Positions 34,792 to 49,579 of a stretch of 64,000 bases of DNA are shown here, piece after piece. The first letter of the stretch is position 1, and each line of letters opens with the position of its first letter. The notes beneath the pieces were generated by a model that had not been told where the DNA came from, did not search any database, and saw nothing but the letters and a program-made list of their open reading frames with translations. The position numbers were made by a program, and so were the translations under genes. This DNA comes from Ruminococcus sp. (GTDB lineage Bacteria; Bacillota; Clostridia; Lachnospirales; Lachnospiraceae), in NCBI GenBank assembly GCA_013911065.1, contig JACERV010000023.1, forward strand, positions 23,589 through 87,588, read 5' to 3'.

Positions 34792-36270
34792 ATGGCTCAA
34801 TATATTATCGCCCATGATTTGGGGACATCAGGAAACAAAGCTACATTATTTACAGTCGGCGGCCAAATGGTCAAAAGCTGTACTATTCCATATGACGTAC
34901 ACTTTTTTGGGAAAAATTATGCTCAGCAGAACCCGTCAGATTGGTGGGTTGCAGTATGCCGGGCAACAAAAAATATACTGGAGGGTGTTGACAAGGCAGA
35001 TATTATAGCACTTTCCTTCTCTGCACAGATGCAGGGCTGTCTTTTGGTAGACAGAGAGGGAAATCCTCTTCGTCCTTCGATTATCTGGGCGGATCAGCGT
35101 GCCTTGAAAGAAGCGGAACACCTGGAGAGTGAAATTGGTTTTGACAAAATGTATGAGATTACAGGCCACCGCCTGAGTCCCAGCTATACTCTGGAAAAAA
35201 TTATGTGGCTGAAAGAACATGAACCGGAAGTCTATAAAAAGGCCTACAAATCGCTCCAGGCGAAGGATTATATTCTTTATCGGCTGACCGGGGAATTTGT
35301 GACGGACTACTCTGATGCATCGGGCACTCATGCACTGGATCTGGAACACCTGTGCTGGGCGGATGAAATATTGGAGGCTTCCGGCATTAACCGGGATTTA
35401 CTGCCCCGGCTGTGTAATTCTACGGATATTGTAGGAAAGGTTACAAAGGAAGCCGCAGAAGCTACCGGACTTTGTCAGGGAACTCCGGTTGTCTGCGGAG
35501 GCGGGGACGGTCCGTGTGCCGCGGTGGGCGCCGGTTGCATTCACGATGATGAATTATTTGTAACCTTTGGAACATCTGCATGGGTGGGAGGAACAACAAA
35601 GAAGAAATTTTTGGATGATGAGAAGATTTTCTTCTGCTTTGCCAACGTGATTCCGGGCAGATATATGCCCTGCGGAGCAATGCAGGCAGCAGGCAGTTCC
35701 TATTCTTATATCCGCAGCATTCTGGCACCCGGCGAACCATACAGTGAGTTAAATACTTTGATAGAAAATTCACCGGCAGGTGCAAAAGAGCTGCTGTTCC
35801 TTCCCTATATGCTGGGAGAGCGCAGTCCCCGCTGGAATGAGGAGACAAGCGGAGCCTACCTTGGGATTAAGATGCATCACAGGAAAGAAGATTATATCAG
35901 GGCGGTTATTGAAGGCGTTGCATATAACCTGGAGTTAATTCTTGCCTCCTATAGAAAATATCTGTCTGTAGAGAACTTGATACTCACCGGAGGCGGTGCA
36001 AAAGGAGATGTTGTGTGCCAGATACTTTCTGATGTATTCCGTGCCAGGCTTTCCACACCGGACCATGTGGAAGAAGCGACTTCTATAGCAGCAGCCATGA
36101 TTGCAGGTGTAGGCGTTGGGGCTTATGACAGTTTTGAAGATGTCACCAGATTCTTGAAGTTTCAAAAAGAGTATACTCCAAACCAGGAAAATCAGGCTGT
36201 TTATGAGAAAATGAAACGAATTTTTGATGCCAGTTATTATGCACTGGAAAATATCTACAAAATGTTTTAA
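34792..36270 (+). CDS. FGGY-family sugar kinase (xylulokinase-like)
   Basis: 492 residues. The FGGY kinase core begins IIAHDLGTSGNKATLFTV (phosphate loop). The central GDGPCAAVGAGCIHDDELFVTFGTSAW and the C-terminal ILTGGGAKGDVVCQILSDVF are conserved ATP-binding parts. Length and pattern fit xylulokinase; the substrate could also be another ketose. Its last codons, together with the following bases, form the left 37-base direct repeat (36247-36283) of the nitrogenase-like island, so the island appears to have inserted at this gene's 3' end without disrupting it. Confidence 0.88.
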   Translation: MAQYIIAHDLGTSGNKATLFTVGGQMVKSCTIPYDVHFFGKNYAQQNPSDWWVAVCRATKNILEGVDKADIIALSFSAQMQGCLLVDREGNPLRPSIIWADQRALKEAEHLESEIGFDKMYEITGHRLSPSYTLEKIMWLKEHEPEVYKKAYKSLQAKDYILYRLTGEFVTDYSDASGTHALDLEHLCWADEILEASGINRDLLPRLCNSTDIVGKVTKEAAEATGLCQGTPVVCGGGDGPCAAVGAGCIHDDELFVTFGTSAWVGGTTKKKFLDDEKIFFCFANVIPGRYMPCGAMQAAGSSYSYIRSILAPGEPYSELNTLIENSPAGAKELLFLPYMLGERSPRWNEETSGAYLGIKMHHRKEDYIRAVIEGVAYNLELILASYRKYLSVENLILTGGGAKGDVVCQILSDVFRARLSTPDHVEEATSIAAAMIAGVGVGAYDSFEDVTRFLKFQKEYTPNQENQAVYEKMKRIFDASYYALENIYKMF

Positions 36271-36283
36271 AGAAGTGATATAC
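36247..36283 (+). repeat. Left 37-bp direct repeat (island attachment-like site)
   Basis: The last 24 bases of the sugar kinase gene, including its TAA stop, plus 13 bases downstream. It matches 45969-46005 at 36 of 37 positions, the only difference being G at 36275 against A at 45997. The two copies are in the same orientation and 9,722 bases apart. Confidence 0.85.
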
Positions 36284-36319
36284 GATGTTCTGACTCTTGC
36301 ATCAAAACAGAGTAAAAAT

Positions 36320-36354
36320 GCCCTCAATCCCAATATATATAATGGATTGGGGGC
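36320..36354 (+). terminator. Terminator-like hairpin after the sugar kinase
   Basis: GCCCTCAATCC with GGATTGGGGGC (one wobble), then TTGCTGTTT. A very similar hairpin with the same right flank (TTGGGGGCTTGCTG) lies at 45869-45903 inside the other end of the island. Confidence 0.65.
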
Positions 36355-36488
36355 TTGCTGTTTCGTAAGAAAGCCACAGTGCTTTTTTGCTTCTTTGGTA
36401 TGTGCTAAAAACTTTTTTATTTCACCAAGGGACAGGATTCTATTTAACTTGTCTTATTATTTTTATAATAAAAAACCTATAATACCTA

Positions 36489-36517
36489 TTGACAAAATAT
36501 GTTTAAACATTTATACT
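36489..36517 (+). promoter_or_regulatory. Promoter of the yezD-nif-like cluster with embedded palindrome
   Basis: TTGACA at 36489-36494 and TATACT at 36512-36517 with a 17-base spacer, an excellent sigma-A promoter. The spacer holds a perfect 12-base palindrome, ATGTTTAAACAT, at 36498-36509, placed where a repressor would block polymerase. It directs transcription into yezD at 36575. The remainder of the 304-base gap after the sugar kinase shows only the terminator above. Confidence 0.75.
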
Positions 36518-36574
36518 ATAAAAAATCTATATAAAACATATCAGAATAGTAGGAAATAATCGAGGGATAGAGAT

Positions 36575-36742
36575 ATGGAGGATAGCAATAAAAGGCATGG
36601 TAAAAAAAATGTAATAACAGAAAAGGACATTCAGAAGGTAATTGAATTTATCGAAGCAGTTCAATACGGTTCCATCACTCTCGTTATTCAGGATGGAAGA
36701 ATAGTACAGATAGAAAAAAATGAAAAAGTAAGGATGAAATAA
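36575..36742 (+). CDS. yezD: YezD-family small protein (DUF2292)
   Basis: 55 residues. The core ITEKDIQKVIEFIEAVQYGS followed by ITLVIQDGRIVQIEKNEK is the DUF2292/YezD signature. In Bacillus, YezD is encoded next to sulfur-metabolism genes and is induced with them; its molecular role is unknown. GAGGGATAG lies upstream of the ATG. The gene directly follows the cluster promoter and is separated from nifB by a terminator, which would let it be made even when the rest is shut off. It supports a sulfur, not nitrogen, role for the cluster. Confidence 0.82.
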   Translation: MEDSNKRHGKKNVITEKDIQKVIEFIEAVQYGSITLVIQDGRIVQIEKNEKVRMK

Positions 36743-36765
36743 AAATGGTGATCAGACAACTGAAG

Positions 36766-36812
36766 CCGAACAGACTGGGACATAGTTCATGTCAAAGTCA
36801 GTTCGGTTTTTT
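36766..36812 (+). terminator. Attenuator-like terminator between yezD and nifB
   Basis: A long interrupted stem: CCGAAC, GACT and GACAT (36766-36783) pair with ATGTC, AGTC and GTTCGG (36789-36806) around the loop AGTTC, followed by TTTTTT. It is an intrinsic terminator located inside the operon, 38 bases before the nifB start. Regulated read-through would control the nitrogenase-like genes. I could not identify a matching riboswitch class. Confidence 0.8.
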
Positions 36813-36849
36813 ATTTTACCCAAATGGAAATAAAGGAGGTTTGGATTCT

Positions 36850-37743
36850 ATGAATTTAACATTAGAACAAAATAAAGAGAAACTTGCCTATGTTTCTAAC
36901 AGGCATCCATGTTTTGGTCAAGGTCCTAATGTAAACAAGGGAAGAGTACATTTGCCGGTCAGTCCTACCTGCAACATCCAATGTGCTTTTTGTAAAAGGA
37001 GTATTAATAAATTAGAGCAAAGACCAGGAGTCACGGGCAAGCTCTTAAAGCCACAGGAGGCAGCAGACATTGTAAAAAAAGCATTGGAACTTTGTCCGGA
37101 AATTACTGTAGCTGGAATTGCAGGACCGGGAGACACATTGGATACCTGTTTCGCCATAGATACATTTGAGCTTATAAGCAAAACACATCCTGATCTTATC
37201 AATTGTCTTAGTACCAATGGACTTTTACTGGAAGATTATGCAGAAAAACTTGTTGAAGTAGGTGTCAGAACCATAACAGTTACAGTAAATGCAGTAAATG
37301 CCTGTATCCTAAAGGATATTTGTCTTTTTATCATATACGGAGGTAAAAAGTATGAGGGACTTGAGGGAGCAGAAATTTTAATTGAAGCTCAGAAAAAAGG
37401 TATTAAAAGAGCTGTTGAGTTAGGTGCGATAATAAAAATTAATGTTGTTTTAATACCTGGAGTAAATGACGGACATATTGAAGAAATAGCGAAAACTGCA
37501 GCAGAGCTGGGCGCTTCCTTTATAAACATTATACCTCTGATTCCCCAGCATATGTTTGCAGACAAAGCAGAACCCACTTGTAATGACTTACATAAGGCCA
37601 GGCAGACAGCGGAAAAGTATCTGCCGGTTTTCAGGCATTGTCAAAGGTGCAGGGCAGATGCCTGTGGAATTCCCGGCAGGAAAGAGGTGGCAGATTTACT
37701 TTATGATTATAGAGGAATAGAACAGACTTTTTCCCATGGCTAA
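36850..37743 (+). CDS. nifB: NifB-like radical SAM cofactor maturase
   Basis: 297 residues from ATG 36850 (MNLTLEQNKEKLAYVSNRHPC) with AAAGGAGG upstream. The radical SAM cluster motif is CNIQCAFC (C41, C45, C48) inside HLPVSPTCNIQCAFC. AGIAGPGD, NGLLLEDY and the C-terminal RCRADACGIPG are NifB hallmarks, as is the HPC near the N-terminus. NifB builds the carbide-containing 8Fe-9S precursor of nitrogenase cofactors. This copy lacks a C-terminal NifX domain, which is encoded separately by the next gene. It implies that the downstream NifDK-like protein carries a complex Fe-S cofactor. Confidence 0.93.
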   Translation: MNLTLEQNKEKLAYVSNRHPCFGQGPNVNKGRVHLPVSPTCNIQCAFCKRSINKLEQRPGVTGKLLKPQEAADIVKKALELCPEITVAGIAGPGDTLDTCFAIDTFELISKTHPDLINCLSTNGLLLEDYAEKLVEVGVRTITVTVNAVNACILKDICLFIIYGGKKYEGLEGAEILIEAQKKGIKRAVELGAIIKINVVLIPGVNDGHIEEIAKTAAELGASFINIIPLIPQHMFADKAEPTCNDLHKARQTAEKYLPVFRHCQRCRADACGIPGRKEVADLLYDYRGIEQTFSHG

Positions 37744-37774
37744 TGTCTGAAAGATAAATAAGGTGGTGACAAAT

Positions 37775-38116
37775 ATGGAATATAAGATTGGAATTGCATC
37801 CACGGATGGCAAAGTAGTGAACCAGCATTTTGGCCATACAAAAGAATTTCTAATAGTGAAAGTGGATGAGAAAGGAGAAAATCATTTCCTTGAAAAAAGG
37901 AAAGTAACACCTCCATGTAATGGCGGAGAACATAGTGAAGAGAGATTGTCCAAAGTTGGGGAAGTTATTTCTGACTGCAAATATATACTTTGTTCGCAAA
38001 TTGGCCCTGGTGCAGAATTATATTTGAAAGGAATAGGGATTACACCCTATGCAATCCCTCATTTTGTAGATTATGCGGTTCAAAAAATAATTCAATATGA
38101 TAGAAGGCTGAGATAA
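37775..38116 (+). CDS. NifX/NifB C-terminal-domain family protein
   Basis: 113 residues from ATG 37775 (MEYKIGIASTDGKVVNQHFGHTKEF), eight bases after AGGTGG. The GVVNQHFG-like motif and the following EFLIVKV strand identify the dinitrogenase iron-molybdenum cofactor biosynthesis domain, which binds cluster precursors. In many diazotrophs this domain is fused to NifB; here it is free. It carries PPCNGGEHSEERL and CSQIGPGAELYL, both typical of the fold. It probably accepts the NifB product and hands it to the DK-like enzyme, since no NifEN scaffold is present. Confidence 0.88.
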   Translation: MEYKIGIASTDGKVVNQHFGHTKEFLIVKVDEKGENHFLEKRKVTPPCNGGEHSEERLSKVGEVISDCKYILCSQIGPGAELYLKGIGITPYAIPHFVDYAVQKIIQYDRRLR

Positions 38117-38130
38117 CCAAAAAGCTATAA

Positions 38131-39012
<882 letters not shown>

Positions 39013-39024
39013 AGGAGAGAGATT

Positions 39025-39963
39025 ATGGCAAAAATAGCAAAAAAACTTACAGAACTAATAGGAAACACTCCATTATTACAGTTAACAGATTATAGCAACG
39101 AAAAAGAAATCAGAAGTAATCTAATTGCTAAACTGGAATATTTTAATCCATTGGGTTCTGTAAAGGACAGAATTGCCCTGGCGATGATTGAAGATGCAGA
39201 AGAAAAAGGCCTGATTAATAAAAACACAGTTATTATTGAACCTACTAGCGGAAATACAGGTGTAGGATTGGCTTTTGTGGCAGCTTCTAAGGGGTATAAA
39301 ATTATCCTGACCATGCCGGATACCATGTCTGTAGAGAGAAGAAAGCTTTTATCTGCTTTAAGAGCAGAATTGGTATTAACTCCCGGTAAGGATGGAATGA
39401 AGGGGGCTATAAGAAAAGCAGAAGAGCTTTCGGCAGTATTCCCCCATTCGTTTATTCCACAGCAGTTTAATAATCCTGCGAATGCCCAGGTACATAAAGA
39501 GACCACCGCTCAGGAAATATGGAGAGACCTGGAGGGAAAGATAGATATCTTTGTTGCCGGGGTAGGAACAGGAGGTACGATTACAGGTGTAGGAAGGGCT
39601 CTAAAGGAAAAGAACCCTGATATTAAAATAATTGCTGTAGAACCGTACCCTTCTCCCGTATTATCAGGAGGTGCACCGGGTCCTCATAAGATTCAGGGGA
39701 TTGGAGCCGGGTTTATTCCTAAGGTGCTGGATACAGATGTGATAGATGAGATATTTAAAGTGCAAAACGAAGAAGCCATTGAAACATCACAGGATTTATC
39801 AAGAACAGAAGGATTATTAGTAGGAATATCTTCAGGAGCAGCAGCTTTTGCAGCAGCCCAGGTTGCAAAAAGGAAAGAGAATGAAGGAAAAAATATTGTG
39901 GTAATTTTGCCGGATACAGGAGAAAGGTACCTGTCAACTCCATTATATGATTGGATTAATTAG
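39025..39963 (+). CDS. cysK: Cysteine synthase (O-acetylserine sulfhydrylase)
   Basis: 312 residues. The PLP lysine lies in [11 protein letters not shown], the phosphate-binding loop is TSGNTGVG, and [13 protein letters not shown] and GISSGAA are present. The length fits CysK (type A). It makes cysteine from O-acetylserine and sulfide. It starts 12 bases after the nifH stop with an AGGAGAG site, between nifH and the nifK-like gene, which strongly suggests that the nitrogenase-like enzyme releases sulfide that this enzyme captures. Confidence 0.95.
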
Positions 39964-40030
39964 AGAAAGAGATGTGGTTACAGCATGGGAAAAGTGGTTT
40001 TTAAAATGAAGAAATTAAGGAGGGAAAATG

Positions 40031-41371
40031 ATGGGGAAGTATGTTGACAGACCCAGGTACGGGTGTGCATTGGGAGGGGCTTTATCCTTATTACGGGCTA
40101 TTCCAAGAGCAATTCCAATTATTCACTCTTCTACCGGATGCGGCTACAATGTTTACAATGGAATCAATGCAGGGGCAGCCTACCTTGGCGGAGGATATTG
40201 TGGAGGAGCTGCATTGCCCAGCAGCAATATTATCGAGAGAAATGTAGTATTTGGGGGAGAAGACAGGCTTGCGGAGCAGGTTGAGAAAACAATAGAGATT
40301 ATGGATGGTGACATTTATGTTATTGTAACCGGATGTATGGTGGAGATGATTGGTGATGACATCTATTCTGTAGCCAGAGAATTCGAAGAAAATGATAAAC
40401 CTGTAATTCCGGTATCTACACCAAGCTTTCAGGGCAACTCCTATACTGGTTATGATATGGTATTTTCTGCATTGGTTAAAGAATACGTAGAGGCGGAAGA
40501 AGAAAAAAAAGTCTGTAAAGTGAATGTAATCGGCATTGTTCCGGGAGAAGACGTATTTTATAAAGGAAATTTAAAGGAAATTAAAAGGATATTGGGGCTT
40601 ATTGGAATAGATTCCAATACTTTTGTAGGAGAAGGAGAAACCCTGGATAATTTTAAAGGGGCCGGAAATGCAAGTCTTACTATCGTTTTATCAGATGTAT
40701 ATGGAGTGGAAACAGCCAAAGTTTTTGAGGAGATACATAAGATTCCCTATTTGCTAACAGGTCTTCCTATCGGTTATTTGCAGGTTGAAAATTTTTTATA
40801 TGAGGTTGGAGAAGCTTTAAATATAGATAATGAGGTAATTGAAAAAGCTCTTGAAGCAGAGAAAGAGACTTATTTTGATTATTTTGAAAGAATTACGGAT
40901 ATTTATAACGATATTGATCTACAAAGATACGGAATTGTTGTAGCAGATGCCAATTATGCACCGTCAGTCAGCCGATTTATATCAGATGAATTAGGATGGC
41001 TTCCCCAGTTGGCAATGATAACAGATTTTTTAACAGAAGATCAAAAAAGCAGGCTGGAGTCCAGATTTGAGAATTATGATTCCGAATTAAAGCCTTTAGT
41101 AAAATTTGATACGGATGCTTCGGCAGTAAAAAAGTATATTAGAGAGCTGTGGCCGGCAGATCAAAATGAGAGATATTATGATGCCCTGGGACCAGGATTT
41201 ATATTAGGCAGTGTGATTGAAAGGGATTTTGCAGATGAATTTAATTATCCACTATTATCCATTGCCTTTCCTGTAACTAACCGTGTTATATTCAATCGTT
41301 CCTATGCAGGCATAAACGGTGCGCTTACATTGACCGAGGATATATTTTCATTATTAGTAGCAGGCAGATAA
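40031..41371 (+). CDS. NifK-like (beta) subunit of a nitrogenase-like reductase
   Basis: 446 residues from ATG 40031; the adjacent ATG at 40028 is closer to AAGGAGGG than usual. Counting from the 40028 ATG, C13 (RYGC), C38 (STGCG) and C103 (TGCMVEMIGDD) match the P-cluster cysteines of NifK, and TPSFQGNSYTGYD matches the NifK TPSF loop. C58 is an extra cysteine. It is shorter than classical NifK and lacks its C-terminal extension. It forms the alpha2beta2 core with the next gene product. A NifN/BchB-like scaffold role is less likely because no other beta subunit is present. Confidence 0.85.
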   Translation: MGKYVDRPRYGCALGGALSLLRAIPRAIPIIHSSTGCGYNVYNGINAGAAYLGGGYCGGAALPSSNIIERNVVFGGEDRLAEQVEKTIEIMDGDIYVIVTGCMVEMIGDDIYSVAREFEENDKPVIPVSTPSFQGNSYTGYDMVFSALVKEYVEAEEEKKVCKVNVIGIVPGEDVFYKGNLKEIKRILGLIGIDSNTFVGEGETLDNFKGAGNASLTIVLSDVYGVETAKVFEEIHKIPYLLTGLPIGYLQVENFLYEVGEALNIDNEVIEKALEAEKETYFDYFERITDIYNDIDLQRYGIVVADANYAPSVSRFISDELGWLPQLAMITDFLTEDQKSRLESRFENYDSELKPLVKFDTDASAVKKYIRELWPADQNERYYDALGPGFILGSVIERDFADEFNYPLLSIAFPVTNRVIFNRSYAGINGALTLTEDIFSLLVAGR

Positions 41372-41383
41372 GGGAGGAGAAGA

Positions 41384-42886
41384 ATGAGTTATCAGGTAGA
41401 AAGTTCAGCACCCGCTAGAGAAGAGCGCTTAAAGGCAGGAATTGCTTTTGGAGGAACGTGCAGAGAATTAAAATGCAGCATGAATAAGGGAGGCTGTTTA
41501 AATGCAGCTAACAGAAGCTTTTCCCAGACTTATGGCTGCCAGTTTACATTAAGTCTTGGAATACTTAATACCATACGTAATGCAGTAGTTATTATGCATG
41601 GCCCCATAGGATGTGGATTTTGTTCTACGGCAACCATTGGAACAGGAAAGTTTTATAAACGGTTAAGAGATCCTCAGGCAAACGGAACCATTTGGCTAAG
41701 TACAAATCTGGATGAGTCTGCAGTTATTGGAGGAGGGGAAGAGAGTCTCAGAAAAACGGTGCTTTTTGCAGATAAAGAATACAGGCCGGAAACAATTATA
41801 GTAGTAAGTTCCTGTGTACCGGCTCTGATTGGTGATGATGTTGATGGAATTGTACAGTCCCTTCAAAGTGATGTGGCTGCAAAACTGGTACCCGTAAACT
41901 GTGAAGGATTTAAAACAAAGGTTATGGCTACTGCCTATGATGCTGCTTATAATGGAATTATGAAGAAACTGGTAAATCCTTATGGAGAATGGAGAAAACT
42001 CACAGAGTCAGATAAGGATAATATTGACAGAGATTACAGAATCAGCAGAAAAGTTAATATTTTTAATGTGGGTTCCATGAGCCGGCAGGATGAAGTTGAG
42101 CTTGAAAGATTACTAAAGGCTTTAGGCTTAGAGGTTACATTTCTGCCCTGTTATTCTGAACCTGATGATTTTTCTATTTCTTTAGAAGCAGCGTTGAATG
42201 TAAGTATATGTGGTACCCATGATGATTATTATTTACAGTTTTTAAAAGAAAACTTTGGGATCCCTTATATCATTGATACCATACCCATCGGACGTAAAAA
42301 TACAGACAGATGGATATTAAAAATTGCTGAATTCTTCCACTTGGAGGATGAAGCAAAGTCTCTAATTGAAAAAGAAAATGAAATTCTAAATAAAAGCCTT
42401 GATACATTCCGGGAAATATTAAAAGGGAAAAAGGTTTTTATAGGCGGCGGAGAGGTTAGAATATTATCTACTGCAGAGGTGCTTCAGGACTTTAATATGG
42501 AAATTGTCGGACTAAAAGGGCATCATATTGACAAGTTTGTAGAGCCTATCTTTGAATCCTTAGAAAATATTGATGATGTATCTATCAATATAGCAACTCA
42601 GCATCCTTTTGAGCAAGCGAATATAGTCAGGAAGATTAAGCCGGACGTAATTGTGATTCATACAGGAGGCAATAACATTAGTGCAAAACATGGCCTGCCA
42701 ATTCTTCCCCTTTATGGGCCCAGCTATAATTATATGGGATATACAGGAGTATTTGAGATTGGAAGGCGTTTAGCAAGAGTTGTAAAGAATTATCAGTTTA
42801 ATAAAAATATAAAAAAATACAGGCCATTGCCATTTAAAGAATCCTGGTATGAAAAAAATCCATACACCTATATTAAAGAAAATTAG
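41384..42886 (+). CDS. NifD-like (alpha) catalytic subunit of a nitrogenase-like reductase
   Basis: 500 residues. C52 (YGCQF), C77 (GPIGCGF) and C144 (SSCVPALIGDD) match the three NifD P-cluster ligands. C276 in NVSICGTHDD matches the NifD cysteine that holds the end iron of FeMo-co. The region where NifD has its second cofactor ligand (His442) reads ILPLYGPSYNYMGYTG and has no histidine at that position, although His436 is near. Extra cysteines C26, C31 and C38 occur near the N-terminus. The protein therefore appears to bind a large Fe-S cofactor with a different ligand set and to act on a substrate other than N2. GGAGGAG precedes the ATG. Confidence 0.85.
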   Translation: MSYQVESSAPAREERLKAGIAFGGTCRELKCSMNKGGCLNAANRSFSQTYGCQFTLSLGILNTIRNAVVIMHGPIGCGFCSTATIGTGKFYKRLRDPQANGTIWLSTNLDESAVIGGGEESLRKTVLFADKEYRPETIIVVSSCVPALIGDDVDGIVQSLQSDVAAKLVPVNCEGFKTKVMATAYDAAYNGIMKKLVNPYGEWRKLTESDKDNIDRDYRISRKVNIFNVGSMSRQDEVELERLLKALGLEVTFLPCYSEPDDFSISLEAALNVSICGTHDDYYLQFLKENFGIPYIIDTIPIGRKNTDRWILKIAEFFHLEDEAKSLIEKENEILNKSLDTFREILKGKKVFIGGGEVRILSTAEVLQDFNMEIVGLKGHHIDKFVEPIFESLENIDDVSINIATQHPFEQANIVRKIKPDVIVIHTGGNNISAKHGLPILPLYGPSYNYMGYTGVFEIGRRLARVVKNYQFNKNIKKYRPLPFKESWYEKNPYTYIKEN

Positions 42887-42904
42887 AAGGTTGACCAAAA
42901 AAAT

Positions 42905-42946
42905 TGGAGACTTGAATTAACTAACTATTAATTCGGGTCCCTTTTT
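42905..42946 (+). terminator. Intrinsic terminator between nifD-like and importer genes
   Basis: GAATTAA/TTAATTC core stem extended by imperfect GGAGAC/GGGTCC pairing, followed by TTTTTT. It would reduce, not abolish, expression of the importer relative to the enzyme. Confidence 0.65.
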
Positions 42947-42961
42947 TAAAAGGAGAAAAAG

Positions 42962-43933
42962 ATGGAAAAAAAGAAATATCCGGCAGGATTGGATATTAGA
43001 GTGCTGGTGCCGATTATAAGCTTAAGTCTGTCTCTGATACTACATATATTACTGCCGGCTAATAAGAATTACACACAAAAGGAATTTACTTACTATACCG
43101 GTTTTTTAATTCTTATGCTGGTAATTTACACTGTTGTTATGATTATTACTATATTTCATAAAAAATTTCGTAAAAAAATGGCCCATAAAAGCTGGTTTAT
43201 AGGAGTTGCATTTTTACTGCTAAATTTATACAATCTTGCAACCATTAAATTTATGTTAATTCCAAGCATTTATTTTCCCAGCCCCGAAATAATTTTCAAG
43301 GTATTTATAAAGGACGGGGCATTCTTGCTAAAATGTCTGGGATACTCGGGAAAGCTTTTAGTAACAGGTTATCTATCAGGCTGTATATTAGGAATTTTGA
43401 CAGGAATCCTGGTAGGATGGAGTACTTCATGGAATTACTGGATTAACCCTGTAATCAAGGTAATCGGACCAATACCTTCTACTGCCTGGGTACCCATTGC
43501 TTTAGTTGCATTTCCTACTTCTTTTACAGCAAGTGTTTTTTTAATAGGGCTTGCGGTATGGTTTCCAACGACAGTGCTTACAAGTTCCGGTATCTCAGGT
43601 GTGAAGCAGGCATATTTCGAAGTGTCCAGTACCCTGGGAGCATCTACTATTCAAAATATATTTAAAATTGCAGTGCCTTCTGCCATGCCCAGTATATTTA
43701 TTGGAATATTTAATGGGACCTGTGCTTCGTTTTTAACTTTAATGACAGCAGAGATGCTGGGTGTTAAATATGGGCTTGGCTGGTACATTAACTGGCAGAA
43801 GGATATGCTTTCTTATCCGAATGTCTATGCAGGATTGATAACTATAGCAGTTACATTTTCATTGTTAATTACCTTGTTGTTCAGAGCAAGAGACAAAATT
43901 TTAGTATGGCAGAAGGGAGTAATTAAATGGTAA
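42962..43933 (+). CDS. SsuC/TauC-type ABC importer permease
   Basis: 323 residues. The C-terminal 220 residues form the usual permease with the EAA-type loop EVSSTLGASTIQNIFKIAVPSAMPS. About 100 N-terminal residues with two extra hydrophobic helices (VPIISLSLSLILHILLP and ILMLVIYTVVMIITIF) are additional to the typical length. Family members import sulfonates, taurine, nitrate or thiamine precursors. The stop overlaps the ATPase gene by seven bases. Its location suggests import of an organosulfur compound. Confidence 0.88.
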   Translation: MEKKKYPAGLDIRVLVPIISLSLSLILHILLPANKNYTQKEFTYYTGFLILMLVIYTVVMIITIFHKKFRKKMAHKSWFIGVAFLLLNLYNLATIKFMLIPSIYFPSPEIIFKVFIKDGAFLLKCLGYSGKLLVTGYLSGCILGILTGILVGWSTSWNYWINPVIKVIGPIPSTAWVPIALVAFPTSFTASVFLIGLAVWFPTTVLTSSGISGVKQAYFEVSSTLGASTIQNIFKIAVPSAMPSIFIGIFNGTCASFLTLMTAEMLGVKYGLGWYINWQKDMLSYPNVYAGLITIAVTFSLLITLLFRARDKILVWQKGVIKW

Positions 43934-44718
43934 AAGATATTAATGGCAAAATAGAAGCTCTTCATGTCCATAAATATTTTATAAAGCCGGAAGGAGAGAA
44001 GGTATACGCCCTTAACGATGTAAATGTAGCCATAAAGCCAGGAGAATTTATTTCTTTAATTGGTCCTTCAGGATGTGGGAAAACAACATTTCTAAGACTG
44101 GTTGCAGGTCTTGATAAGGCGAATTCAGGGGAAGTAACCCTGGACGGAGAAAAAATTGTAAATGCGGGTTATGAGAGAGGTTTGGTATTTCAGGATCCGA
44201 CCTTATTCCCCTGGCTTAATATTAAGGAAAATGTAGCTTATGGGCTGAAAACAAGAAAAGTCTATAAAGATAAAAAGAATGAAGTGAATGAATTTATTCA
44301 TCTGGTGGGCTTAGACGGTTTTGAAAAGTCATACCCTCATCAATTGTCTGGAGGTATGGCACAAAGAGCTGCCCTGGCAAGGGCATTGGTAAACCATCCC
44401 AAGGTACTTCTTCTGGATGAACCTTTTGGGGCATTGGATGCATTTACCAGGATGAATATGCAGGATGAATTGCTTAAAATATGGAAAGACAGAAAGACTA
44501 CAATGATAATGGTGACTCATGATGTAGATGAAGCAATTTATCTAAGTGACAGAATTGTGGTAATGTCAGCCAGGCCAGCAAAAATTGAAGATATAATAGA
44601 TGTTGATATGGGACGTCCAAGGGGGAGGGATATGCCGGAATTTTTGAACATGAGAACTAAAATATTACAGATTCTGGATTTTGCCGGTAAGCGGGAGGAA
44701 CCTGAATACATGATATAA
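43927..44718 (+). CDS. SsuB/TauB-type ABC importer ATPase
   Basis: 263 residues. Walker A GPSGCGKTT, Q-loop LVFQDPTLFPWL, signature LSGGMAQRAALARAL, Walker B LLLDEPFGALD and switch VTHDVDEA. The PWL after the Q-loop is characteristic of the nitrate/sulfonate/taurine subgroup. It overlaps the permease gene and is followed 59 bases later by the binding protein. Confidence 0.92.
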   Translation: MVKDINGKIEALHVHKYFIKPEGEKVYALNDVNVAIKPGEFISLIGPSGCGKTTFLRLVAGLDKANSGEVTLDGEKIVNAGYERGLVFQDPTLFPWLNIKENVAYGLKTRKVYKDKKNEVNEFIHLVGLDGFEKSYPHQLSGGMAQRAALARALVNHPKVLLLDEPFGALDAFTRMNMQDELLKIWKDRKTTMIMVTHDVDEAIYLSDRIVVMSARPAKIEDIIDVDMGRPRGRDMPEFLNMRTKILQILDFAGKREEPEYMI

Positions 44719-44777
44719 GGGGAATGGATTCGTAATAAATGATAAACATGGTGAAATTTTATATTAGGAGGTTATTT

Positions 44778-45827
44778 ATGAAAGTAAAGAAATTAGCAGC
44801 AGTACTTGTAAGCGCAATATTTATGTTATTAGTAATAGGATGTGATAAAAAAGAAGCTCAAAGCGACAGTAAAGAGGTAAGCCAGACTTCAACAGAGGAA
44901 ACTGCCGTTAAGGATGATTATGTTATTAAAGTTGGGTATGGAGGAAGTTTGTGCGAAGCTCCAGTTCATATTGCATATGAAAAAGGATATTTTGAAGAAC
45001 AGGGAATTAATGTTGAGCTTATTAAACTGAATCCGGGTACGGGATTTGATGCAATTACTACAGGAAAAGTAGATGTAAATTTTGCTCTTTTGGCAAGTCT
45101 GGTAGATCCATTAGCGAATGGACTTCCTGCAAAAATTACAACAGGAGTACATACCGGATGTGATAAAGTATTGGTAAAAAGCGATTCGGGAATTGAATCA
45201 GCTAAAGATTTTGTGGGTAAGAAGGTTGGAGTTGCAAGTTATACGGCAAGCCCTTATATATATTTAAGAAGGGTATTGGCAGATAATGGCGTAGGAGTTA
45301 ATGTTGATAATGCAGAAGTAGAATTTGTAGTATATGGAGCAGCGGATCTTCCATTGGCTTTGGAGAACGGAGCAGTGGATGCGGTTGCAATGAATGACCC
45401 GACTGCTTATATTGCAGCAGATGAATATGGATTTACCACTTTATTTGACTCAGCTATAGATGAACCTTACAATGAACAGTATTGCTGCTCAATTTATATT
45501 AGAAATGAATTTTTGGAAGAACATCCTCAGCTTGCAGAAAAGTATACCATAGCAATTCAAAAAGCAAGTGCCTGGGTTCAAGAAAACCCTGATGAAACAA
45601 CTCAGATACAGGTGGATAATGAATGGGTAGCAGGTGATGCAAAAGCCAATGCAGAAGTATTAAAAACATTTAATTATATTCCGTCTGCCAGCGGAGCATA
45701 TGAAGCATTTGGCATAGTAGCAAAAGAGATGCAGGAAATGGGAATGATTAGTGAAGATGTAAATGTTGAAAAATTAATAGAAAATAGCTTTGAACTCTTT
45801 GATGGACTGCCTGAGGAATATAAATAG
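44778..45827 (+). CDS. SsuA/TauA-type substrate-binding lipoprotein
   Basis: 349 residues from ATG 44778 (MKVKKLAAVLVSAIFMLLVIGC) with TAGGAGG upstream. The lipobox is LVIGC, followed by a Ser/Thr/Glu-rich linker, then an NMT1/SsuA-like fold: GGSLCEAPVHIAYEKGYFEEQGINVEL and AVDAVAMNDP. The binding site of sulfonate- or taurine-like ligands is the usual role of the family; the real ligand is unknown. Two extra cysteines occur in GCDKV and QYCCSIY. Confidence 0.88.
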   Translation: MKVKKLAAVLVSAIFMLLVIGCDKKEAQSDSKEVSQTSTEETAVKDDYVIKVGYGGSLCEAPVHIAYEKGYFEEQGINVELIKLNPGTGFDAITTGKVDVNFALLASLVDPLANGLPAKITTGVHTGCDKVLVKSDSGIESAKDFVGKKVGVASYTASPYIYLRRVLADNGVGVNVDNAEVEFVVYGAADLPLALENGAVDAVAMNDPTAYIAADEYGFTTLFDSAIDEPYNEQYCCSIYIRNEFLEEHPQLAEKYTIAIQKASAWVQENPDETTQIQVDNEWVAGDAKANAEVLKTFNYIPSASGAYEAFGIVAKEMQEMGMISEDVNVEKLIENSFELFDGLPEEYK

Positions 45828-45868
45828 ACCGGATATTTTGAGTTTTGCAGTAAAATAAAGTAAGAGAT

Positions 45869-45903
45869 GCCCCCAATTCCAGTATTTACAAGGAATTGGG
45901 GGC
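45869..45903 (+). terminator. Rho-independent terminator at the right end of the island
   Basis: GCCCCCAATTCC pairs perfectly with GGAATTGGGGGC, followed by TTGCTGCTTTG. It closes the importer transcript and resembles the hairpin at 36320-36354. Confidence 0.8.
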
Positions 45904-45968
45904 TTGCTGCTTTGTCATAGCAGACAGGCCCAGTCTAAATGAAGCAATGTGTAACTGCAAAACAATAA

Positions 45969-46005
45969 GAAAATATCTACAAAATGTTTTAAAGAAATGA
46001 TATAC
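45969..46005 (+). repeat. Right 37-bp direct repeat (island attachment-like site)
   Basis: 36 of 37 bases identical to 36247-36283, the 3' end of the sugar kinase. It lies 48 bases before the EamA transporter start, with no kinase coding sequence around it, so it is a duplicated fragment, not a gene. Confidence 0.85.
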
Positions 46006-46998: not shown

Positions 46999-47025
46999 AA
47001 ACAGGAGGTTCTGGCTGTTATCATT

Positions 47026-47379
47026 TTATTCTAACAGAGTCCGGATTTTATGATACTCAGCATCTACTTTGCTGTATTTTTTATTCAAGGCTTTTTCATC
47101 GAGAGTATCCAGGGGCGTCTGCCTGAGAAATTCCGTCAGCTCGGAAGCTGCTTCCGCCAGGGGCGTCAGTTCCAGGTTCAGGCACAGGCCTTTGAGAGTA
47201 TGTATGGCCCGGAATGCATTCACGTAATCCTTTTTCTCGATAGTCTCTTTTACCTGAAGAAAGCTGGTATCTTTCAGGAACATATGCAGGTATTTTGAAA
47301 TACGTTCATCATTTGACAAACGGCGCAGCGCATTGGGATAAGAAGCGCCGATTGCCTCGTAAAAATCATGTGGATTCAC
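47026..47379 (-). CDS. Stand-alone Hpt (histidine phosphotransfer) protein
   Basis: 117 residues, all helical. The phosphorylated histidine is H60 in FRAIHTLKGLCLNL, the canonical HxxKG motif. Such proteins pass phosphoryl groups between a hybrid kinase and a response regulator. No kinase or regulator is adjacent, so its partner is elsewhere. It is next to the HAD phosphatase and probably co-transcribed with the genes upstream of it. Confidence 0.88.
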   Translation of the reverse strand: MNPHDFYEAIGASYPNALRRLSNDERISKYLHMFLKDTSFLQVKETIEKKDYVNAFRAIHTLKGLCLNLELTPLAEAASELTEFLRQTPLDTLDEKALNKKYSKVDAEYHKIRTLLE

Positions 47380-47396
47380 AACAATACCCTCTCTTT

Positions 47397-48206
47397 CTAT
47401 CTCATAAATTTTTCAATAACATATAGGATTCCGTCTTCATCATTGGAACGTGTGATAAAATCAGCAGTATCTTTCACAATATCCTGGGCATTTTCCATGG
47501 CAACTCCCAGTCCTGCATATTCAATCATAGACACATCATTATATCCGTCACCGCAGCATATCATCTGATCGGCAGTCATCCCAAGACTGTTAAGCAGCTT
47601 TTGAAGAGAATAGGCTTTGTCAATGCTCTTAGGCATGACTTCCAGAAAAAATGGTTCTGAGAGATAAACATTAAGAAATGTATGAAAACGCTTTTTCATG
47701 GCATCCATTGCCTCTTTTACAATGGATGGATCTCCTGTGACCAGCAGCTTGTTTATCGGGAATTGCAGGTAGTCAACAAAGTCGGGAATCTCCAGCACCG
47801 GCATTTTATTAATGAAAGCTTCCCGGTGCGTATACTCGTTGGGGGTAATACCAGACAGGATATTCTCTCCCTCATATGTCAGGACATCCAGACCGGGAAA
47901 AGAAGCGGTAATTGCACACACCTCAGGGATAACCTCAGGCGGCAGCGTCCTGCTGTAAAGTACTTCCCCGTCATAGCAGCGGGTAATGCATGCTCCGTTA
48001 AAGGAAAGAATGTAGCCCCCATATTGAGCCAGCTTTAATTCTTCTGCAAGAGGCAGTATACCGTTAATAGGGCGGCCGCTTGCAAGTACCACTTTTTTGC
48101 CTTCCTGCTGTAATTCAATAAGAGCGTTTCTTGTAGGTTCCGTAATTTCTTTTTTAGAATTGGTCAATGTACCATCCAAATCAAGTGCCAGCATTTGATA
48201 ATCCAT
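47397..48206 (-). CDS. Cof-type HAD hydrolase
   Basis: 269 residues. HAD motif I is ALDLDGTLTNS, motif II VVLASGRP, motif III with the K in SIDKAYSLQKLL, and motif IV ICCGDGYNDVSMI, with a C2-type cap between. It hydrolyses sugar phosphates or cofactor phosphates such as FMN or pyridoxal phosphate; the exact substrate is not shown. It follows MurF by two bases. Confidence 0.92.
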   Translation of the reverse strand: MDYQMLALDLDGTLTNSKKEITEPTRNALIELQQEGKKVVLASGRPINGILPLAEELKLAQYGGYILSFNGACITRCYDGEVLYSRTLPPEVIPEVCAITASFPGLDVLTYEGENILSGITPNEYTHREAFINKMPVLEIPDFVDYLQFPINKLLVTGDPSIVKEAMDAMKKRFHTFLNVYLSEPFFLEVMPKSIDKAYSLQKLLNSLGMTADQMICCGDGYNDVSMIEYAGLGVAMENAQDIVKDTADFITRSNDEDGILYVIEKFMR

Positions 48207-48208
48207 AA

Positions 48209-49579
48209 TTACCTCGTCTTCAGAGCTTCTACGATTTCGGGAAATTCCATTCCATGGGAAGCTTTTACTAATATTGTATCGCGGGCTGTTATCAGAGAGT
48301 CTATATGCTCCAGGAATTCAGCTTTTGTTTCATAATGGTAGATGTCTATATCTGGGTTTTCCCCTGCAGCACCCCGGGCAATCTCTTCAGAGAGAGTACC
48401 AATACAGATGAGCTGGCTGATACCGGCTTTCGCAGCATATTGCCCTACCTCGTAGTGCATTTCCTGTTCTGTCGGTCCCAGTTCAAACATATCTCCTAAA
48501 ATAGCGACAGTACGTCCATCTGCCTGGCTGAGAACATCTAAGGATGCTTTCATGGAGTCGGGGTTGGCATTGTAACAGTCATCGATGATGGTCAAGAGTG
48601 GGGTTTCAATCAGATTGTTACGGCCTGCAAGGGGCACCAGTGCCTCAATTCCCTGTTTGATTTCTTCATCGCTCATGTCAAGGGCACGTCCTACTGAAAC
48701 TGCAGCCAGGGCATTGTAAACCATATGTTCTCCAGGAACAGAAATATGTGCCGTAAATTCTGAGTCAGGAGTGCAGAATGTTGCAGATGTCCCTTTCAGC
48801 CCCAGGTTCTCTACATTTTTAACGGAATATTCACATTGGGGGCCAAACCCAAAGAATATAGGCTGAATCCGGTTGGCAGGGGTGACTGTCTGAAGCATAT
48901 CATCATCTCCGTTGAGGATAATGCTTCCCTGGGGATTCATAAATAAAAACATTTCTGTTTTTGCTTTCAGGATGCCTTCTCTGGACTTCAGCTGCTCCAG
49001 ATGAGCGCAGCCGATGTTTGTGAGAACGCAGATATCGGGCCGGGATATTCTGGCCAGCCGCTCCATTTCACCGAAATCACTGATTCCCATCTCCAGTATG
49101 GCAACTTCATGCTCTTCCTTAATATTAAAAATGGTGAGGGGAAGTCCGATTTCGTTATTGAAATTACCTTCTGTTTTTAACATATTATATTTCTGACTGA
49201 CAACGGAGGCAATCATTTCTTTTGTACTTGTTTTGCCCACACTTCCTGATATTCCCACCACTTTCAGGCGAAGGGAGCGGCGGTAGTGCTCTGCAATATC
49301 TCTGAGCGCCTGGGCACAGGAATTTACCATAATATAAGGATATGCAGCATTTTCTATACGCTTTTCAGATACGGCACACAATGCACCGTCATGAATAGAC
49401 TGGGGGATAAACATATGCCCGTCTACACGTGCGCCCCGAATTGCAATAAAAAGACAATCCTTCTGAATCTTACGGCTGTCTATGGTAACGCTGCTGACTT
49501 CCTTATAATAACTTTCTTCATCCCCATAATAAATGCCGCCGCATGCGACGGAAATTTCTTTTAATGTCATATTTCTCAT
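48209..49579 (-). CDS. murF: UDP-N-acetylmuramoyl-tripeptide D-Ala-D-Ala ligase
   Basis: 456 residues from ATG 49579 (MRNMTLKEISVACGG); the ATG at 49591 is almost touching AAAGGA. GISGSVGKTSTKEM is the ATP loop, IIDDCYNANPDSM the substrate-binding motif and VAILGDMFELG the C-terminal domain marker. It attaches D-Ala-D-Ala to the peptidoglycan precursor in the cytoplasm. The D-Ala-D-Ala ligase gene lies directly upstream, so the two act consecutively. Confidence 0.95.
   Translation of the reverse strand: MRNMTLKEISVACGGIYYGDEESYYKEVSSVTIDSRKIQKDCLFIAIRGARVDGHMFIPQSIHDGALCAVSEKRIENAAYPYIMVNSCAQALRDIAEHYRRSLRLKVVGISGSVGKTSTKEMIASVVSQKYNMLKTEGNFNNEIGLPLTIFNIKEEHEVAILEMGISDFGEMERLARISRPDICVLTNIGCAHLEQLKSREGILKAKTEMFLFMNPQGSIILNGDDDMLQTVTPANRIQPIFFGFGPQCEYSVKNVENLGLKGTSATFCTPDSEFTAHISVPGEHMVYNALAAVSVGRALDMSDEEIKQGIEALVPLAGRNNLIETPLLTIIDDCYNANPDSMKASLDVLSQADGRTVAILGDMFELGPTEQEMHYEVGQYAAKAGISQLICIGTLSEEIARGAAGENPDIDIYHYETKAEFLEHIDSLITARDTILVKASHGMEFPEIVEALKTR

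What the first reader, a model, noticed from the sequence alone, without database searches (positions are those of the whole stretch)
36489..45903. A compact nitrogenase-like system wired to sulfur metabolism
Ten genes on one strand encode YezD, NifB, a free NifX-like domain, NifH, CysK, NifK-like, NifD-like and a full SsuABC/TauABC-type importer. nifE, nifN, nifU, nifS, nifV and nifA are missing, so N2 fixation is improbable. The gene content predicts uptake of an organosulfur compound, ATP-driven reductive C-S cleavage, and trapping of sulfide as cysteine. It recalls the methylthio-alkane reductase MarBHDK of purple bacteria, but its setting (cysK inside, sulfonate-type importer, YezD, gut-type Firmicute) points to a different substrate and product.
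Basis: partly seen in the sequence, partly recalled or inferred. Interest (0 to 1): 0.93.

Follow-up and report, generated by a model that had tools for sequence, protein, structure and literature searches.

The report
Mobile nitrogenase-like sulfur-scavenging gene islet
A bacterium of the Faecalicatena kind carries an inserted block of ten genes for a nitrogenase-like enzyme of an uncharacterised family, predicted to strip sulfur from an imported organic compound so that a neighbouring enzyme would likely fix it as cysteine, which would let anaerobes gain sulfur without a sulfite reductase.

Summary
In detail: ten co-directional genes (YezD, NifB, free NifX domain, NifH, CysK, NifK-like, NifD-like, three-part ABC importer). 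They form an islet: two congeners show the empty site, a 37-nt repeat flanks the block, and GC is 37% against 43%. The nearest solved protein is methylthio-alkane reductase (MAR), but the D subunit belongs to a separate clade; grouping it with MAR alone is rejected (AU p 1.6e-5; not rejected for K, p 0.08). P-cluster cysteines and both MAR-type ligands of the [Fe8S9C] cluster are kept; MAR's Arg428, Trp195 and His194 are not. It fails the published isethionate-reductase residue criteria. The clade (six phyla by record title) has K before D and a close CysK within 6 kb in 33 of 36 testable loci, against 3 of 33 in sister clades, where more distant CysK-like genes are common. Of 47 carrier genomes searched, 29 show no sulfite-reductase domain, so sulfide is the likelier product. 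The importer's binding protein has conserved cysteines, so a sulfonate ligand is not established. Substrate and product are untested. 'nifE/N missing' is true of this locus only; the genome has a nif operon elsewhere. Verdict: a variant of the known carbon-sulfur-cleaving nitrogenase-like enzymes.

The parts
36247..36283 (.). left copy of 37-nt direct repeat (3' end of the kinase gene and stop)
   Evidence: 97% identical to 45969-46005
36318..36366 (+). hairpin-forming repeat, left copy
   Evidence: 82% identical to 45867-45915
36489..36517 (+). promoter-like site TTGACA-17-TATACT with a 12-bp palindrome in the spacer
   Evidence: best of 27 sites, 11 of 12 matches; the total of 27 is no more than shuffles give; palindrome also in F. 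contorta L039, not in L040
36575..36742 (+). YezD, 55 aa, DUF2292
   Evidence: PF10055 63.4 bits
36850..37743 (+). NifB, 297 aa, without the NifX domain; makes the carbide-containing Fe-S cluster precursor (inferred)
   Evidence: TIGR01290 253.9 bits, below its full-length cut-off 343.65; solved NifB 7jma 284 bits, E 1e-83
37775..38116 (+). free NifX/NifB-C-terminal domain
   Evidence: PF02579 65.9 bits
38155..39012 (+). NifH-like Fe protein, 285 aa, P-loop, C99 and C134
   Evidence: TIGR01287 462.7 bits, over cut-off 394; 75% identical to the genome's nif-operon NifH
39025..39963 (+). CysK, cysteine synthase A
   Evidence: TIGR01139 464.7 bits, over cut-off 351; a second CysK, 61% identical, on contig C25
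40028..41371 (+). NflK, beta-type catalytic subunit; C13, C38, C103 P-cluster ligands (inferred), C58 clade-specific
   Evidence: MAR K subunit 245.9 bits vs 81.6 for the next; residues
41384..42886 (+). NflD, alpha-type catalytic subunit; C52, C77, C144 (P cluster), C276 and H426 (active-site cluster), all inferred from MAR
42909..42939 (+). terminator-like hairpin between nflD and the importer genes
   Evidence: -15.8 kcal/mol, z -4.94 for 42900-42950, followed by CCTTTTTT
42962..43933 (+). ABC importer permease
   Evidence: PF00528 66.5 bits
43927..44718 (+). ABC importer ATPase
   Evidence: PF00005 119.9 bits; SaoA 277.9 bits, below cut-off 360
44778..45827 (+). binding lipoprotein with conserved C72, H138, C141, C249, C250 (numbered from ATG 44739)
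   Evidence: PF09084 94.1 bits; conservation; fold
45867..45915 (+). hairpin-forming repeat, right copy; possible terminator
   Evidence: z -3.86 for 45828-45903; repeat; not listed by the terminator scan
45969..46005 (.). right copy of the 37-nt direct repeat

Best explanation
The ten genes are an inserted islet whose nitrogenase-like enzyme is predicted to use ATP-driven electrons and a NifB-made iron-sulfur-carbon cluster to cut carbon-sulfur bonds of a likely imported organosulfur compound, releasing sulfide that the neighbouring CysK would turn into cysteine. Shown: gene content, insertion at an otherwise empty site, membership of a separate clade, conservation of the P-cluster and [Fe8S9C]-cluster ligands as in MAR, loss of MAR's own pocket residues, and the tight link to CysK. 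Inferred: that the clusters are present, that the Fe protein feeds the K-D component, that the substrate comes through the ABC importer, and that sulfide is the product. Steps: (1) the Cys-bearing lipoprotein and its permease and ATPase take up the ligand; (2) NifB and the free NifX domain make and carry the [Fe8S9C] cluster; without nifE/N/V in the block no Mo or homocitrate is added, as in MAR; (3) the NifH-like dimer passes electrons through the P cluster to the active-site cluster; (4) the C-S bond is reduced; (5) CysK joins sulfide to O-acetylserine.
For: MAR is the nearest solved relative of both subunits by sequence and of D by fold. Ligand residues: MarD C66, C91, C158, C270 and H429 are kept in 38 of 38 core representatives; K C13 and C38 in 44 of 45 (one gap) and C103 in 45 of 45. 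The Mo ligand His442 of NifD is F or Y in 38 of 38. NifB match in 44 of 47 carrier genomes. CysK at least 60% identical within 6 kb in 33 of 36 clade loci with 6 kb on both sides, vs 3 of 33 in MAR and two sister clades, Fisher p 7.8e-13 on related, so not independent, loci. No NIR_SIR domain in 29 of 47 carrier genomes; of these 29, 27 have a strong CysE match (E <= 1e-40), 27 a NifB match and 29 a CysK in the stretch, so simple incompleteness is an unlikely cause. The islet brings its own CysK although the host has another. Insertion.
Against: No substrate, product or expression evidence. This genome itself has a NIR_SIR protein (NirA-like, below all cut-offs), so sulfite could be used here. 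With CysK-like genes of any identity the contrast shrinks: before de-duplication 35 of 38 clade loci against 15 of 35 sister-clade loci. MetY does not separate this clade from MAR: 2 of 36 here, 1 of 9 for MAR. The binding protein looks built for a soft metal or thiol ligand; an SsuB homologue is within 6 kb in only 28 of 36 full loci, and binding proteins near clade-A loci L067, L077, L106 (two) and L202 lack the Cys set. A terminator-like hairpin stands between nflD and the importer genes. Most carriers are MAGs of unstated completeness. CysK can use other nucleophiles (recalled).
Confidence: 0.47

Rival explanations
1. It is a sulfonate reductase that releases sulfite, as Isr does, and the sulfite is reduced by another enzyme before CysK acts.
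For: Importer of the SsuABC/TauABC superfamily in the same block; Isr also works with an SsuCAB importer (PMC11423573, sections read); this genome has a NIR_SIR protein, as do 18 of 47 carriers.
Against: 29 of 47 carrier genomes show no NIR_SIR domain. IsrD is reported to lack two P-cluster cysteines and Cys275, which are all present here, and IsrB is reported not to be NifB-like, while this NifB is.
Confidence: 0.16
2. It cuts a thioether or methylated sulfur compound to a small thiol such as methanethiol, as MAR does, and CysK is only a general sulfur gene or makes an S-alkyl-cysteine.
For: Nearest solved enzyme is MAR. Four Treponema loci (L068, L076, L083, L087) have URO-D-type methyltransferase and RACo genes within six called ORFs of nflD, and PMC10418091 (passages) links such clusters to group IV-A nitrogenase-like genes. 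MetY, the thiol-trapping enzyme expected for methionine salvage (recalled), is rare near MAR too (1 of 9), so its rarity here (2 of 36) does not speak against this rival.
Against: MAR's W195, H194 and R428 are absent; the close CysK link is much stronger than near MAR (33 of 36 vs 1 of 9).
Confidence: 0.16
3. The importer brings a metal or organometallic compound and the enzyme reduces that, as guessed for the SAO systems.
For: C/H/C/CC set in the binding protein; the ATPase's best NCBIfam score is to SaoA and the binding protein hits SaoX; SAO described as Sec-assisted organometallic (PMC13188914, passages).
Against: Scores are far below the Sao cut-offs, and the binding protein scores higher with SsuA_fam; it does not explain the CysK link.
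Confidence: 0.08
4. It is a true but minimal nitrogenase.
For: NifB, NifX and a NifH over the nifH cut-off; nitrogen fixation by group IV enzymes without NifEN has been proposed for Endomicrobium and Heliophilum (PMC9147875, passages).
Against: NifD His442, Gln191 and His195 are replaced by F/Y, M and Y in 38 of 38; the genome has another nif operon; MAR with the same cluster does not reduce N2 (PMC12552129).
Confidence: 0.03

Closest known systems
Methylthio-alkane reductase MarBHDK (Rhodospirillum rubrum; PDB 9FMG, 9D9U)
   Same: NifB-type maturase, Fe protein, P-cluster cysteines, Cys270 and His429 ligands of the [Fe8S9C] cluster
   Different: About 29% identical in D; separate clade for D; K before D; CysK and an importer in the block; Arg428, Trp195 and His194 absent
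Isethionate reductase IsrBHDK with SsuCAB (Rhodobacter capsulatus)
   Same: Group IV nitrogenase-like enzyme with a sulfonate-superfamily ABC importer and proposed C-S cleavage
   Different: As published: IsrD has one P-cluster cysteine and no Cys275; IsrB is BciD-like rather than NifB; product is sulfite
Group IV sequences with Cys275 beside cysteine synthase or OAH sulfhydrylase (Dos Santos 2012, PMC3464626)
   Same: The sulfur link was noted there in general terms
   Different: In the passages seen: no separation of this clade, no function
Pillotina corrugata nifK-nifD plus cysteine synthase (PMC13067680)
   Same: Probably a member of this clade by its described gene content (its sequence was not tested here)
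SAO (Sec-assisted organometallic) importer
   Same: Best NCBIfam score for the ATPase; binding-protein kinship
   Different: Below cut-offs; no nitrogenase-like genes mentioned in the passages read

Membership tests
Methylthio-alkane reductase | Six P-cluster cysteines | tested here: met
   D C52, C77, C144; K C13, C38, C103
Methylthio-alkane reductase | Cys270 and His429 ligands of the [Fe8S9C] cluster | tested here: met
   C276 and H426, 38 of 38 core representatives
Methylthio-alkane reductase | Arg428 next to His429 (hallmark proposed in PMC12552129) | tested here: not met
   gap in 38 of 38; R in 13 of 13 MAR rows and in 37 of 37 rows of two sister clades
Methylthio-alkane reductase | Trp195 and His194 beside the cluster | tested here: not met
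   M in 38 of 38; V/L/A/I in 38 of 38
Methylthio-alkane reductase | D subunit in one clade with MarD | tested here: not met
   union with MAR alone rejected, AU p 1.6e-5
Methylthio-alkane reductase | K subunit in one clade with MarK | tested here: inconclusive
   not in the best tree, but a union is not rejected, AU p 0.079
Methylthio-alkane reductase | Reduction of methylthio-alkanes | not testable with these tools
   needs purified enzyme
Isethionate reductase | IsrD keeps only one of three P-cluster cysteines and lacks Cys275 | tested here: not met
   all four present; criterion from PMC11423573
Isethionate reductase | Radical SAM partner not NifB-like | tested here: not met
   true NifB, 284 bits to solved NifB
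Isethionate reductase | Clade with IsrD | not tested
   no IsrD sequence was obtained
Mo-nitrogenase | FeMoco ligand His442 and pocket Gln191, His195 of NifD | tested here: not met
   F/Y, M, Y in 38 of 38
Mo-nitrogenase | NifE and NifN in the same operon | tested here: not met
   only two Oxidored_nitro genes in the block; four more on contig C31
Tetrapyrrole reductases (Bch/Chl, Cfb) | Groups with BchNB, BchYZ or CfbD | tested here: inconclusive
   lower profile and fold scores than nitrogenase or MAR for D; not placed in a tree
SsuA/TauA sulfonate-binding proteins | Score over the family cut-off | tested here: not met
   SsuA_fam 107.2 vs 163.5; taurine 27.2 vs 304

The most novel reading that the evidence does not exclude
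A self-contained mobile module encodes a nitrogenase-type enzyme that takes an imported organosulfur compound, perhaps a sulfonate in one many-electron reduction, all the way to sulfide on an [Fe8S9C] cluster, bypassing sulfite and sulfite reductase and feeding CysK directly.
Probability: 0.15. Interest if true: 0.85.

Novelty: new variant of a known kind. Interest (0 to 1): 0.62.

Why it matters
Only two sulfur reactions of group IV nitrogenase-like enzymes appear in the papers read here (MAR and Isr). This clade keeps the ligands of the nitrogenase clusters but has a rebuilt pocket and a close CysK partner, so it would test the claim that the protein, not the cluster, sets the reaction. By record title it occurs in six phyla, mostly Treponema-type MAGs and Clostridia, and 29 of 47 carriers searched show no sulfite-reductase domain. 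It therefore bears on how anaerobes get sulfur, and on where small hydrocarbons and sulfide come from in anoxic places. The islet is compact enough to move into a laboratory host and test as a unit.

Tried and rejected
Rejected: nitrogenase (residues); MAR membership; Isr membership (against PMC11423573). A leader motif shared with L040 (36533-36557) was checked as a regulon site: one exact match in the genome, at this locus, and one 3-mismatch match, against 4 in the backward control; none near the other cysK; 13 of 100 shuffles of the window hold a match to its shorter form at 3 mismatches. Dropped as a regulon. The 12-bp palindrome is not shared with L040. No Rfam hit at gathering scores and no tRNA in the window. 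The fold of the binding protein does not decide its ligand: nitrate, bicarbonate and sulfonate binders are tied. SaoX could not be compared residue by residue; the SAO paper is not held. BchN/BchB/CfbD and IsrD were not put in a tree. The K tree does not reject a clade with MAR (p 0.079). Positions of the binding protein's cysteines in space were not measured.

Rows chosen or dropped: D alignment A1 used 26 of the 120 listed homologues; the fold alignment A2 used 66 rows, 20 of them MarD, which may pull the model towards MAR. Binding-protein alignment A3 used the window plus 22 of 32 listed matches; the ten left out include the divergent L067, L077 and L106 copies. L203 and L208 (same contigs as L048 and L039) were dropped before the counts; two E-clade loci that share a stretch with a clade-A locus (both with CysK) before the 3 of 33; long rows L199, L200 and two NifE before the AU test. 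Residue counts use representatives at 82% identity (205 of 330 sequences). Genome searches used 49 of the 79 loci, 47 of them held; L074 and L115 were not searched.
Full report
WHAT IS THERE. Ten genes run on the + strand from 36575 to 45827: YezD (DUF2292), NifB without its NifX domain, a free NifX-type domain, a NifH-like Fe protein, CysK, NflK, NflD, and an ABC permease, ATPase and binding lipoprotein. A promoter-like site (TTGACA-17-TATACT, 36489-36517) precedes them. A strong hairpin (within 45867-45915) follows, though the terminator scan did not list it. A second hairpin before a T run lies between nflD and the importer genes (42909-42939; z -4.94), so importer expression may differ from that of the enzyme genes (inference).

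WHOSE GENOME. The genome is a congener of Faecalicatena contorta: the same ten genes are 98-100% identical in L039, whose title names F. contorta, and that contig's length (372706) equals the one of G001, given as same genus. Among 98 relatives searched, only three, the own genome, G001 (100%) and G027 (48%), hold a D at least 45% identical. The genome also has a nif operon on contig C31 (nifH, a PII-like gene, nifD, nifK, nifE, a nifN-nifB fusion) and a third nitrogenase-like set on C4 beside a siderophore/cobalamin-type importer and SufS/SufU-like genes (labels by my reading).

AN INSERTED ISLET. Two congeners without the block (G002, G003) have the kinase gene (xylulokinase model over cut-off; 83-86% identical protein) followed after about 40-50 bp by the gene that I call EamA (72-75%; label by my reading, transporter model 2A78 below cut-off): the empty site. 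In the window a 37-nt copy of the kinase 3' end stands on either side (36247-36283 and 45969-46005, 97% identical), and a 49-nt hairpin repeat lies inside these (82%). Block GC is 37.4%; the flanks have 43.5 and 43.3%, and 70 windows of equal length outside the block range from 40.5 to 47.7%. Third-position GC is 0.23-0.33 in the ten genes against 0.43-0.45 in three neighbours. The block was thus acquired as a unit (inference from these facts). No integrase is among its ten genes.

ACTIVE SITE. Residue numbers of MarD come from PMC12552129 (sections read) and fit P0121 exactly. In 38 core representatives: C66, C91, C158 (P cluster), C270 and H429 (active-site cluster) and H375 are kept 38 of 38; R428 is a gap 38 of 38; W195 is M 38 of 38; H194 is V/L/A/I; F199 is Y 38 of 38. 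R428 and W195 are kept in 13 of 13 MAR rows and in all 24 and 13 rows of groups C and E. The NifD positions His442, Gln191 and His195 read F/Y, M and Y. In the six outlying members, position 195 is V (3), M (2) or F (1), H375 is N in 3, and C66 is missing in one cut-off row. K has a cysteine (C58) kept in 44 of 45 core rows (one gap) and 4 of 4 outliers, where six MAR rows have G, S or T. The enzyme is therefore predicted to hold the same two clusters as MAR in a different pocket.

COFACTOR SUPPLY. The NifB is a true NifB (E 1e-83 to solved NifB), and a NifB match (E <= 1e-30) exists in 44 of 47 carrier genomes searched; some of these may belong to nif operons. Without nifE, nifN and nifV in the block, an [Fe8S9C] cluster as in MAR is the simplest cofactor (inference). 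This genome does have nifE/N elsewhere, so cross-talk is not excluded.

GENE ORDER AND PARTNER. In the core clade K lies directly before D in 75 of 78 distinct loci, 3 unresolved; in MAR and groups C and E, D lies before K in 58 of 62, 1 reversed, 3 unresolved. A CysK at least 60% identical to the window's lies within 6 kb in 33 of 36 clade loci with 6 kb on both sides (exceptions L063, L098, L107). In the sister groups it is 3 of 33, or 5 of 35 before two E loci were set aside because they share a stretch with a clade-A locus. The Fisher p value (7.8e-13) ignores relatedness. The contrast depends on the identity threshold: counting CysK-like genes of any identity, and before de-duplication, it is 35 of 38 against 15 of 35 (MAR 1 of 9, C 9 of 16, E 5 of 10); several of the distant ones stand next to an MccB-like gene. 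MetY lies within 6 kb in 2 of 36 clade loci, 1 of 9 MAR, 7 of 16 C and 1 of 10 E loci, so it does not separate this clade from MAR. By strict position, 51 of 63 evaluable loci have CysK on the same strand within two genes upstream of K, 4 have it elsewhere in the stretch and 8 have none called by that script (which treats other long ORFs as genes).

SULFIDE OR SULFITE. Of 47 carrier genomes, 18 have a NIR_SIR domain and 29 do not. The 47 have a CysE match in 46 at E <= 1e-3, 44 at E <= 1e-40, and only 13 over the curated cut-off. Of the 29 without NIR_SIR, 27 have a CysE match at E <= 1e-40, 27 a NifB match, 26 both, and 29 a CysK in the stretch. Most are MAGs of unstated completeness. A sulfite-releasing reaction would be of little use to those 29 unless they reduce sulfite in another way. 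The window's own genome does have a NIR_SIR protein, closest to NirA but under every cut-off.

THE IMPORTER. It is of the nitrate/sulfonate/taurine superfamily, with SsuA_fam 107.2 bits (cut-off 163.5) and SaoX 97.8 (300) for the binding protein, ntrB 90.1 (209) for the permease and SaoA 277.9 (360) for the ATPase. The binding protein has C72, H138, G140-C141, D220-P221 and C249-C250 in 23 of 23 chosen rows. In a wider set of 49 rows (window listed twice, two contigs twice) 39 carry the whole C-H-GC-CC set, 2 lack the first C at a cut-off end, and 8 do not carry it whole. The eight include copies near clade-A loci L067, L077, L106 (two) and L202, so the set is not universal in the clade. Carriers include proteins beside other group IV sets at 28-36% identity (L177, L179, L181, L182, L183, L187, L198, L207), so this may be a shared importer type of these reductases. 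By secondary structure the residues fall at strand ends and hinges where such proteins bind ligand (my reading, distances not measured). The CC aligns with the cysteine stretch of THI5. A thiol, a metal-bound thiol or an organometallic compound is therefore as plausible as a sulfonate.

PRIOR PRINT. Dos Santos 2012 (PMC3464626, passages) noted that nitrogenase-like proteins with Cys275 often sit by cysteine synthase or OAH sulfhydrylase. PMC13067680 (2026, passages) noted nifK-nifD with a cysteine synthase in Pillotina. PMC10418091 (passages) tied group IV-A genes to methyltransferase clusters. MAR: PMC12552129 (abstract, main, most of results, one methods section). Isr: PMC11423573 (abstract, introduction, first part of results, discussion, one methods section). 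Faecalicatena and sulfoquinovose: PMC11659671 (passages; its one 'nitrogenase' occurrence is a reference title). PMC12330013, PMC9147875 and PMC13188914 were seen in passages. Full-text searches of the held open library listed no paper whose title or passages seen name or test this clade as such; the lists were capped (40 of 84 and 20 of 35), and subscription journals are mostly not held.

VERDICT. New elements are the clade, its altered pocket, the K-D order, the CysK link counted against sister groups, the missing sulfite reductases, the Cys-bearing binding protein and the evidence of insertion.

Noticed in passing
genome contig C4, L038:10525-13773: A third nitrogenase-like H-D-K set beside a siderophore/cobalamin-type importer and SufS/SufU-like genes; very divergent (long branches), function unknown.
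   Followed up: partly
window 44778-45827 and binding proteins in L177, L179, L181, L182, L183, L187, L198, L207: A C-H-GC-CC residue set shared by binding proteins beside several group IV nitrogenase-like sets; ligand unknown.
   Followed up: partly
window 47000-48220: A stretch with a small HPt-like and a HAD-like gene (labels by my reading) is present here but absent from the same place in G002 and G003: a second insertion or loss nearby.
   Followed up: no
window 36489-36560: A perfect 12-bp palindrome in the promoter spacer and a leader motif shared with Mobilisporobacter (L040); the motif has no other exact match in the genome.
   Followed up: partly
L068, L076, L083, L087: URO-D-type methyltransferase and RACo genes within six called ORFs of nflD in four Treponema loci, hinting at methylated sulfur compounds in that branch (Pfam run on one copy of each).
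   Followed up: partly
L041-L044, L092, L110: An aminotransferase-fold gene that looks like a MalY/PatB C-S lyase near nflD (Pfam PF00155 for the L092 copy; sub-name by my reading).
   Followed up: partly
NflH of clade loci: Two Fe-protein lineages, about 80% and about 50% identical to the window's, serve the same K-D clade: the Fe protein seems to have been exchanged.
   Followed up: no
NflK C58 (window 40028-41371): A cysteine conserved in the clade and absent from six MAR rows, 20 residues after a P-cluster cysteine; role unknown.
   Followed up: no
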